Source: an uncultured Clostridia bacterium
GTDB taxonomy: Bacteria > Bacillota > Clostridia > Christensenellales > Borkfalkiaceae
Direction of reading: 5' to 3'
DNA: 64,000 bases
Assembly (NCBI GenBank): GCA_947629675.1
Contig: CANREM010000003.1
Span: 1 to 64,000 of the forward strand
How positions within the stretch are numbered: the stretch's first letter is position 1; every line of letters begins with the position of its first letter. The notes under the pieces are model-generated. The model saw only the letters and a program-made list of their open reading frames with translations, did no database searches and was not told the origin of the DNA. Position numbers and translations under genes: made by a program. Shown here one piece after another: positions 54,397 through 54,849 of the stretch.

Positions 54397-54513
54397 CCGC
54401 GCGCTTCGGCCCCCGTGCCGAATAAAAGTAGCGGGCAAGGTTGCCGCAAAAAGCGGCGCAGCGGGTTTGACCTCCGCCTCGGCGTTTTTCCCGTGCCGAG
54501 TAAAAGTGACGGG
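54392..54513 (+). repeat. Two copies of a short repeat between the S51 gene and tRNA-Leu
   Basis: TTTGACC...TTCGGCC...CCCGTGCCGAATAAAAGTAG (54392-54435) recurs as TTTGACC...CTCGGCG...CCCGTGCCGAGTAAAAGTGA (54466-54513). The first copy overlaps the S51 stop codon. I see no gene or clear promoter here; a promoter for the tRNA must lie in this area or upstream. Confidence 0.6.
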
Positions 54514-54521
54514 ATCCATAT

Positions 54522-54604
54522 GCGGATGTGGCGAAATTGGCAGACGCGCAGGTTTCAGGTTCCTGTGGGAGACCATGCAGGTTCAAGTCCTGTCATCCGC
54601 ACCA
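54522..54604 (+). tRNA. tRNA-Leu (anticodon CAG)
   Basis: The acceptor stem GCGGATG/CATCCGC is perfect and CCA is encoded (54602-54604). The anticodon loop TTCAGGT gives CAG, decoding CUG. The variable arm has a short stem (TGG-GAGA-CCA), as expected of class II tRNALeu. The T-arm loop is TTCAAGT. The 31-39 pair is U-U. Its last 21 bases are repeated exactly at 54787-54807. Confidence 0.95.
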
Positions 54605-54643
54605 AAGCGGCGGGAGAGGCAACAGCCTCTCCCGCCGCTTTGG
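54602..54643 (+). terminator. Very strong hairpin directly at the tRNA 3' end, without U-tract
   Basis: A 19-bp perfect stem (54602-54620 with 54625-54643), loop AACA, starts with the CC of the tRNA's CCA. No run of T follows, so it may act in RNA processing or stability rather than as a classic terminator. Confidence 0.7.
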
Positions 54644-54807
54644 TATGAAACGAACACATGACAGGACTTGAGGGTGGAGACGATTGCGGGAGCAATCGGT
54701 TTGCGGGCGAATTGTTTGATTACAACAAAAGTTTGCCGCAAACTTGACAATTGATAATTGTCAACCGGGGCGCGCCGCCAAAGGCGCAAGTCCTGTCATC
54801 CGCACCA
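54605..54807. repeat. Hairpin cassette flanked by a 21-bp duplication of the tRNA 3' end
   Basis: Bases 54584-54604 (end of the tRNA) recur exactly at 54787-54807. Between them lie 182 bp made mostly of perfect hairpins: 54602-54643, CGATTGC/GCAATCG (54681-54698), AAGTTTG/CAAACTT (54729-54745), TTGACAATT/AATTGTCAA (54744-54764) and GCGCC/GGCGC (54772-54787). ATGACAGGACTTG (54658-54670) is the reverse complement of part of the duplicated tRNA end. No coding frame is convincing. The tandem att-like arrangement suggests a past insertion at the tRNA. Confidence 0.85.
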
Positions 54808-54811
54808 CTTG

Positions 54812-54849
54812 GAACGTAAGTTGAACCATTTCAGCTTGCGTTCTTTTTT
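54812..54849 (+). terminator. Intrinsic terminator distal to the tRNA-end duplicate
   Basis: Bases 54812-54825 pair with 54830-54843 (14 pairs including G-U), loop CCAT, followed by six T (54844-54849). It is probably the original terminator of the tRNA-Leu gene, now separated by the cassette. Confidence 0.85.

What the first reader, a model, noticed from the sequence alone, without database searches (positions are those of the whole stretch)
54584..54807. Exact 21-bp duplication of the tRNA-Leu 3' end flanking a 182-bp cassette
The last 21 bases of tRNA-Leu (54584-54604) recur perfectly at 54787-54807, and a strong terminator (54812-54849) follows the second copy. This is the classic att signature of integration into a tRNA, with the element having reconstituted the proximal tRNA end and displaced the original terminator. 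Yet only 182 bp lie between the copies, with no gene, integrase or cargo. Either a very small non-autonomous element or a remnant of a deleted island is present.
Basis: partly seen in the sequence, partly recalled or inferred. Interest (0 to 1): 0.75.

Follow-up and report, generated by a model that had tools for sequence, protein, structure and literature searches.

The report
Tiny elements wearing tRNA-matched arms
The repeat is one copy of a family of about 200-letter non-coding elements that sit at the ends of many different tRNA genes in gut bacteria, each carrying a short mirror copy of its own tRNA while the rest of the element resembles its sisters in the same genome.

Summary
The 21-bp repeat is real, and so is the insertion: with 203 bp left out, the window matches a congener's empty site at 139 of 143 positions. 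It is no lone remnant. Six related units lie in this genome; 44 of 121 sampled genomes of its family match. Inspected units sit behind 15 kinds of tRNA gene and tmRNA. Each has a terminator-like hairpin, an inverted 13-14-nt copy of the local tRNA, a ~115-nt four-hairpin core, and the direct 20-21-nt tRNA copy. The two tRNA-derived arms close a covarying five-helix fold. The striking result is decoupling: cores resemble others of the same genome and not those at the same tRNA elsewhere; arms follow only the tRNA. In one genome the core is identical (114/114) behind a partial tRNA-Pro and a tRNA-Ser with different arms. Best reading: a non-autonomous mini-element at the tRNA T-loop whose antisense arm is rewritten to match each target. 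Enzyme and rewriting step are unknown; gene conversion of old copies is the main rival. No Rfam family matched and no paper found in limited searches describes it.

The parts
54522..54604 (+). tRNA-Leu(cag), intact, CCA encoded
   Evidence: ARAGORN; RF00005 match
54584..54604 (+). proximal copy of the tRNA 3' segment (C56-A76; position numbers by inference)
54601..54644 (.). T1, 20-bp perfect hairpin that includes the tRNA ACCA; terminator-like; absent from the empty site of G009
54645..54657 (+). linker with an ACGAAYAC-like motif that recurs before the inverted arm in many, not all, units
   Evidence: direct reading
54658..54671 (+). inverted arm: exact reverse complement of 14 tRNA bases (T-loop 6, T-stem 5, acceptor 3)
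54681..54698 (+). core hairpin H1
   Evidence: fold, covariation
54699..54743 (+). core hairpin H2: near-invariant GTTTGCG/CGCAAAC stem around a variable loop of about 30 nt
54744..54764 (+). core hairpin H3, sequence variable, pairing kept
54772..54787 (+). core hairpin H4, near-invariant, next to the arm duplex
54787..54807 (+). distal direct copy of the tRNA 3' segment; bases 54788-54799 pair with the inverted arm (stem P1)
54812..54849 (.). T2, native terminator of the tRNA, found directly behind the tRNA in the empty site of G009

Best explanation
A family of non-autonomous, non-coding mini-elements of about 200 bp that insert at the T-loop / 3' end of tRNA and tmRNA genes, leave a working tRNA and a 20-21-bp direct copy downstream, and carry a 13-14-nt antisense arm that matches the host tRNA. 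The two arms pair and close a four-hairpin core. Shown: precise insertion at one locus by an empty-site alignment and at a second by reading the junctions; the five-helix fold; near-exact arms; cores alike within a genome across tRNAs, arms alike by tRNA only. Inferred: the core spreads between tRNA genes, and on arrival the arm is written anew from the target (for instance by copying the target arm across the folded strand), so that the closing stem is rebuilt at each new site. A site-specific recombinase acting in trans is the likeliest insertion agent, in the manner of a cis-mobilizable element; which one is not known.
For: Filled versus empty site at tRNA-Leu(cag): 139 of 143 positions alike, upstream protein 190 of 227. 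tRNA-Ser(cga) is empty in the own genome; of six filled Ser(cga) loci looked at, three (G002, G119, G166) have the same terminator start behind the direct copy. Fold: 96.0% of 853 cells paired versus 81.8% in shuffles and 32-44% when partners are slid; 22 of 39 pairs with changes on both sides. In the 51 of 94 units with a tRNA or tmRNA called within 70 nt upstream, the inverted arm is exact over 13 nt in 43 and complementarity does not go past base 14 in 49. Cores, with labels mended and 6 of 79 units dropped: mean identity 0.754 within a genome at different tRNAs against 0.696 with genome labels shuffled (0 of 2000 reach it); same tRNA in different genomes 0.703 against 0.695 (365 of 2000). 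Arms the reverse: same tRNA 0.875 against 0.648 (0 of 2000), same genome 0.648 against 0.628 (240 of 2000) (first pass, same outcome). The variable H2 loop and H3 alone cluster by genome, not by tRNA. G166: core identical over 114 nt behind a partial tRNA-Pro (L091) and an intact tRNA-Ser(cga) (L168) with different arms and T1. Motif survey not chosen for arms: 84 places, arm with at most 1 mismatch in 60, tRNA or tmRNA within 2.5 kb upstream in 53. Tandem arrays and truncated copies.
Against: No transposition was observed and no enzyme is tied to the element. In 31 genomes (20 carriers, 11 without a full-length match) none of four families tracks it: reverse transcriptase 5 of 20 and 2 of 11, Y1 transposase 6 of 20 and 1 of 11, serine recombinase 18 of 20 and 9 of 11, tyrosine recombinase all 31. 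Gene conversion confined to the core could also make cores alike within a genome. H1 alone does not cluster significantly by genome (p 0.096). Eight of 51 first units have arm mismatches within 13 nt; 22 of 51 show no perfect 21-nt copy where the model ends, though two of these (L002, L065) have an exact copy further down. T1, the linker and the T2 region are weakly alike both by genome and by tRNA. In the motif survey 19 of 84 places show no arm and 31 no tRNA, 13 of these near a contig start. The model was built from units picked for their arms. Genomes are mostly MAGs and many contigs end inside units, so some junctions (L169, L170, L171 in G166) may be misassembled.
Confidence: 0.55

Rival explanations
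1. Old vertically inherited units behind many tRNAs whose cores are homogenised within each genome by gene conversion, while selection keeps the arm paired to the local direct copy; little or no present mobility.
For: Homology between loci ends at the arms, so conversion tracts would be confined to the core; hairpin H3 variants recur in core types of otherwise different sequence (direct reading), as mosaics would.
Against: Clean empty sites exist at tRNA-Leu(cag) and tRNA-Ser(cga) within the genus, occupancy is patchy (44 of 121 genomes of the family), and the units had to reach 15 kinds of tRNA gene and tmRNA with a matching arm nearly each time. Core similarity keeps no significant trace of the tRNA (365 of 2000 shuffles).
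Confidence: 0.25
2. A structured RNA with a regulatory role for its tRNA: read-through of T1 makes an RNA whose antisense arm can pair either with the tRNA T-arm or with the decoy copy downstream.
For: Strong conserved fold; wobble pairs on the tRNA-sense strand exceed the mirror mismatch (GT 62, AC 31 over the aligned units; 33 and 14 in the best 70); some units keep only the pairing part of the direct copy; the whole region can refold around the arm.
Against: Patchy occurrence, tandem arrays, decayed copies and empty sites point to a dispensable element. Wobble pairs are rare (62 of 3306 cells). No Rfam family at gathering score. T1 lies before the arm, so most transcripts should stop first (inference).
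Confidence: 0.13
3. Integron-like cassette: the folded strand acts as a recombination site whose closing stem is made by the two arms, and cassettes bring the tRNA 3' half along.
For: Arms are inverted 13-nt repeats around a folded insert; insertion point at the T-loop; arrays of units of nearly equal length at one tRNA; downstream units need not restore the tRNA, and some have truncated copies.
Against: No integron integrase was searched for; the core sequence is conserved, unlike the variable loops of attC sites (recalled). It does not explain how one core comes to have different arms. The modest wobble excess lies on the tRNA-sense strand.
Confidence: 0.12
4. Remnant of a deleted genomic island.
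For: Larger islands with integrase or serine recombinase genes sit at the same tRNA ends (L055, L204, L226, L243).
Against: Same-build units behind many tRNAs in many genomes; in the island loci read, the island lies between tRNA part and T1, so the unit is separate from it.
Confidence: 0.03

Closest known systems
ssrA-specific genomic islands of Dehalococcoides (serine recombinase DsiB; PMC3146451, passages seen)
   Same: Insertion in the T-loop, 20-bp direct copies of the RNA gene 3' end, tandem accretion; the authors say islands without integration genes might be cis-mobilizable elements
   Different: Islands with genes, at tmRNA; the passages seen mention no inverted arm (the word 'inverted' does not occur in the main text) and no folded core; here many tRNAs, about 200 bp, no gene
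Integron gene cassettes / attC sites (recalled)
   Same: Folded site closed by complementary arms, arrays at a fixed entry point
   Different: Core sequence conserved here, arms equal the local tRNA, no integrase shown
REP/MITE-type repeats (recalled)
   Same: Short, non-coding, palindromic, several copies per genome, no own enzyme
   Different: At tRNA/tmRNA ends, long tRNA-derived direct copy, target-matched internal arm
RNA-guided mobile systems (TnpB/IscB omega RNA, IS110 bridge RNA; recalled)
   Same: A short stretch complementary to the target is set in a conserved folded scaffold
   Different: No transposase or nuclease gene inside the element; guide action is untested

Membership tests
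tRNA-integrating genomic island / cis-mobilizable element | Direct copy of the tRNA 3' end on both sides and an empty site in relatives | tested here: met
tRNA-integrating genomic island / cis-mobilizable element | Own or parental integrase specific for that tRNA | tested here: inconclusive
   No gene inside the unit; none of four recombinase, transposase and reverse transcriptase families tracks the units; a parental integrase elsewhere is not excluded
MITE | Fixed terminal inverted repeats shared with a transposase-bearing parent | tested here: not met
   The inverted arms vary with the tRNA and are not fixed ends; a parent element was not systematically sought
REP/RAYT | Y1 transposase in the genome | tested here: not met
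   Own genome and 13 others of 20 carriers have none
Retroelement / SINE-like | Reverse transcriptase available in carrier genomes | tested here: not met
   RVT_1 in 5 of 20 carriers, the own genome among them; earlier activity cannot be excluded
Integron cassette | attC-like site recombined by IntI | not tested
   Fold is attC-like only in outline; no IntI search was made
Known Rfam RNA family | Match above the gathering score | tested here: not met
   In the stretches searched only tRNA and tmRNA reach it; Clostridiales-1 scores 20.8 bits against 48
RNA-guided transposon | Guide RNA action with a nuclease or recombinase | not testable with these tools
   Needs experiments

The most novel reading that the evidence does not exclude
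A mobile element that reprograms itself on landing: a constant folded scaffold moves from one tRNA gene to another and a 13-nt antisense arm inside it is rewritten from the new target, so the closing stem is rebuilt at each site.
Probability: 0.35. Interest if true: 0.92.

Novelty: categorically new. Interest (0 to 1): 0.78.

Why it matters
Mobile elements at tRNA genes are usually tied to one tRNA through their integrase (recalled). Here one kind of scaffold is found behind 15 kinds of tRNA gene and tmRNA, mostly with an arm that equals the local tRNA while the scaffold follows the genome. If the arm is rewritten on arrival, this is a new way for an element to change target, and the enzyme that does it would be worth having. 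Even under the gene-conversion reading it is an undescribed family, as far as my searches go, of structured repeats at tRNA ends, and it may account for contig breaks at tRNA genes in these genomes (inference).

Tried and rejected
Remnant of a deleted island: rejected, since units of the same build are widespread. Known RNA family: nothing but tRNA and tmRNA at gathering scores. Retrotransposition by a resident reverse transcriptase and movement by a resident Y1 transposase: disfavoured. Viral carriage: the core motif has no exact match in the viral contigs. T-box-like reading of GGGTGG: dropped, because that stretch does not vary with the tRNA end. The first covariance model R1 had a structure string shifted by one to two columns and was not used for any search; R2 replaced it. 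The first labelling treated some arms as separate tRNAs (two tmRNA units of G034 among them); one search mends the labels, drops 6 of 79 units (three doubtful ones of G166, one of them also without an assignable arm, and three more without an assignable arm) and gives the same outcome with a smaller core effect (0.754 against 0.696 instead of 0.768 against 0.694). Searches were not repeated with the mended labels. Apparent chimeras in G166 (L169, L170, L171) could show unit-to-unit recombination but may be assembly errors and carry no weight. In G078 the tRNA-Leu(tag) unit has an arm that fits its own tRNA and the neighbouring tRNA-Leu(caa) about equally (direct reading); not decisive. Paper searches that ran; I saw listings with titles and starts of abstracts, and passages of PMC3146451 and PMC2267715. 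Nothing listed names this family. The library holds only openly licensed papers.

Full report
OBSERVATION. The window carries tRNA-Leu(cag) at 54522-54604. The last 21 bases recur at 54787-54807 with 182 bp between. Directly behind the tRNA lies a 20-bp perfect hairpin (T1), and at 54658-54671 the reverse complement of 14 tRNA bases; neither is in the finding. A second hairpin (T2) follows the distal copy.

A FAMILY, NOT A SINGLE CASE. A search of the own genome (1.57 Mb, 37 contigs) with the locus found related stretches elsewhere. With a covariance model the own genome has six units: behind tRNA-Leu(cag), Leu(tag), Val(cac), Ser(gga), Ser(tga) and tmRNA; 31 tRNA matches pass the family cut-off in this genome. 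Own genome included, 44 of 121 sampled genomes of the same family match at E up to 1e-4, in 12 of 18 genera; in the order 19 of 248 at E up to 0.001; in the class 4 of 341, all four in the own family. The viral contigs gave none. In the 84 motif places of those 80 loci, an inverted arm with at most one mismatch lies upstream in 60; five places lie too near a contig start to tell, 19 have none; a tRNA or tmRNA lies within 2.5 kb upstream in 53, and 31 show none, of which 13 are within 260 bp of a contig start. In several of the 16 such loci that I read, an island or a partial tRNA lies between. Kinds of gene seen with units: tRNA-Leu(cag, tag, aag), Ser(gga, cga, tga, gct), Pro(cgg, agg), Val(cac), Gly(ccc), Arg(acg, ccg), Thr(cgt) and tmRNA, and tRNA-Lys(ctt), where the arm is poor (L203).

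ANATOMY. Order: tRNA, T1 hairpin, short linker, inverted arm, core of about 115 nt, direct copy, terminator. Of 94 model hits, 51 have a tRNA or tmRNA called within 70 nt upstream. In these the arm is exact over 13 nt in 43; base 14 matches in 34; the next base does in only 2. The arm covers T-loop, T-stem 3' strand and two to three acceptor bases; the direct copy begins at C56 or R57 and runs to the CCA without mismatch in 29 of 51. Of the other 22, L002 and L065 carry inserts and have an exact copy further down; in several only the part that pairs with the arm is kept.

FOLD. An alignment of 22 units (of 32 found, those of near-standard length, one per array) folds into a closing stem of the two arms (P1) and four hairpins. 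On the given structure 96.0% of 853 cells pair, 22 of 39 pairs show changes on both sides (shuffled mean 13.3), and the covariation score is 0.389 against 0.118 in shuffles and at most 0.068 when slid. The arm stem contributes much of this because it follows the tRNA; H1 and H3 also covary; the H2 and H4 stems are nearly invariant. The window copy folds better than all 200 shuffles as RNA (z -5.4), and its other strand does as DNA (z -6.5). Mismatches over the aligned units (identical rows once): GT 62, AC 31 of 3306 cells; in the best 70 units 33 and 14. This leans to the tRNA-sense strand, but the cells are not independent and wobble pairs are rare.

INSERTION. At tRNA-Leu(cag), leaving out the 203 bp gives a sequence 139 of 143 alike to congener G009, whose upstream protein is 190 of 227 identical. 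Other Leu(cag) loci without a unit exist in congeners but have other downstream sequence. At tRNA-Ser(cga) the own genome is empty; of six filled loci looked at, G002, G119 and G166 have the same start of the native terminator behind the direct copy, the other three do not.

DECOUPLING OF CORE AND ARM. From 94 model hits in 77 loci I kept 79 of length 138-155. First pass, one representative per genome and tRNA label (72): cores 0.768 within a genome at different tRNAs against 0.694 with shuffled genome labels (0 of 2000); same tRNA in different genomes 0.695 against 0.691 (819 of 2000). Some labels were arms of tRNAs not called by the program; after assigning 11 such labels by their tails, and dropping 6 of 79 units, 65 representatives from 28 genomes give 0.754 against 0.696 (0 of 2000) and 0.703 against 0.695 (365 of 2000). 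The arm gives the reverse: same tRNA 0.875 against 0.648 (0 of 2000), same genome 0.648 against 0.628 (240 of 2000). T1, linker and T2 region are weakly alike in both ways. In G166 the 114-nt core is identical behind a partial tRNA-Pro 3' part (L091, no intact tRNA called) and an intact tRNA-Ser(cga) (L168), while arm and T1 differ. So the core belongs to the genome and the arm to the tRNA.

WIDER KIN. Weaker model hits led to a second core type in another family of the order (handles f16/g42) and in a second genus of the own family, with the same order of parts. The two types are therefore related. Of 19 loci from that search that I inspected, 10 show a tRNA with an inverted arm of at most 2 mismatches downstream (two of them overlap on one contig); 9 do not.

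ENZYME. In 31 genomes of the genus (20 carriers; 11 without a full-length match, one of which, G216, has a truncated unit), reverse transcriptase is found in 5 and 2, Y1 transposase in 6 and 1, serine recombinase in 18 and 9, tyrosine recombinase in all. None tracks the units. Reverse transcription and Y1 action are disfavoured; a recombinase in trans remains possible. Larger elements with tyrosine or serine recombinase genes lie at the same tRNA ends.

MECHANISM. Most likely: the unit inserts at the T-loop, leaves a working tRNA 3' half, and the other half remains as the direct copy. Closest printed parallel: islands of Dehalococcoides in tmRNA, with 20-bp copies and an insertion point in the T-loop, with a serine recombinase (PMC3146451, passages seen). 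What has no parallel that I know is the inverted arm that equals the target while the scaffold is constant. I infer that it is copied from the target, perhaps by synthesis across the folded strand; this step is not shown. Gene conversion of the core between old units would give part of the same pattern and is the main rival.

NOVELTY. No Rfam family reaches its gathering score apart from tRNA and tmRNA, and nothing listed in the paper searches named under Tried and rejected describes it; the library lacks most subscription journals. I rate it categorically new because for each known family considered at least one defining feature was not met, inconclusive or untested, with the caution that mobility itself is inferred.

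Noticed in passing
window 54412-54435 and 54490-54513: A 24-nt direct repeat (88% alike, spacing 78) lies just upstream of the tRNA-Leu; a similar stretch precedes the tRNA in G009 (L084).
   Followed up: no
L002 (own genome C14), L065, L066, L083: A second palindromic repeat of about 100 nt (GGCTCCC...TTTTGGGA...GAGGAG...CGACGAG) is set into the H3 region of several units and similar stretches occur elsewhere, for instance repeatedly in L071 (direct reading).
   Followed up: partly
L055, L048, L258, L243: Frames ending at a partial tRNA end (GTGCACCA or GCGCCA) in front of T1; in L055 and L243 they match serine recombinase domains: larger elements integrate between the tRNA and the unit.
   Followed up: partly
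L204, L221, L226: Phage_integrase proteins are encoded upstream of units, with partial tRNA 3' parts between.
   Followed up: partly
L242: A reverse transcriptase (RVT_1) is encoded close upstream of a unit whose tRNA was not found in reach.
   Followed up: partly
L169, L170, L171 (G166): Left and right tRNA parts of units do not match each other; recombination between units or assembly error.
   Followed up: partly
L079 (G006): Minimal repeats that keep only the two arms and hairpin H4 behind tRNA-Gly(ccc), in tandem.
   Followed up: no
L140, L084, L153, L182: Native terminators of similar sequence (GACGTAAGTTGAAC or AACGTAAGTTGAAC) follow several different tRNA genes.
   Followed up: no
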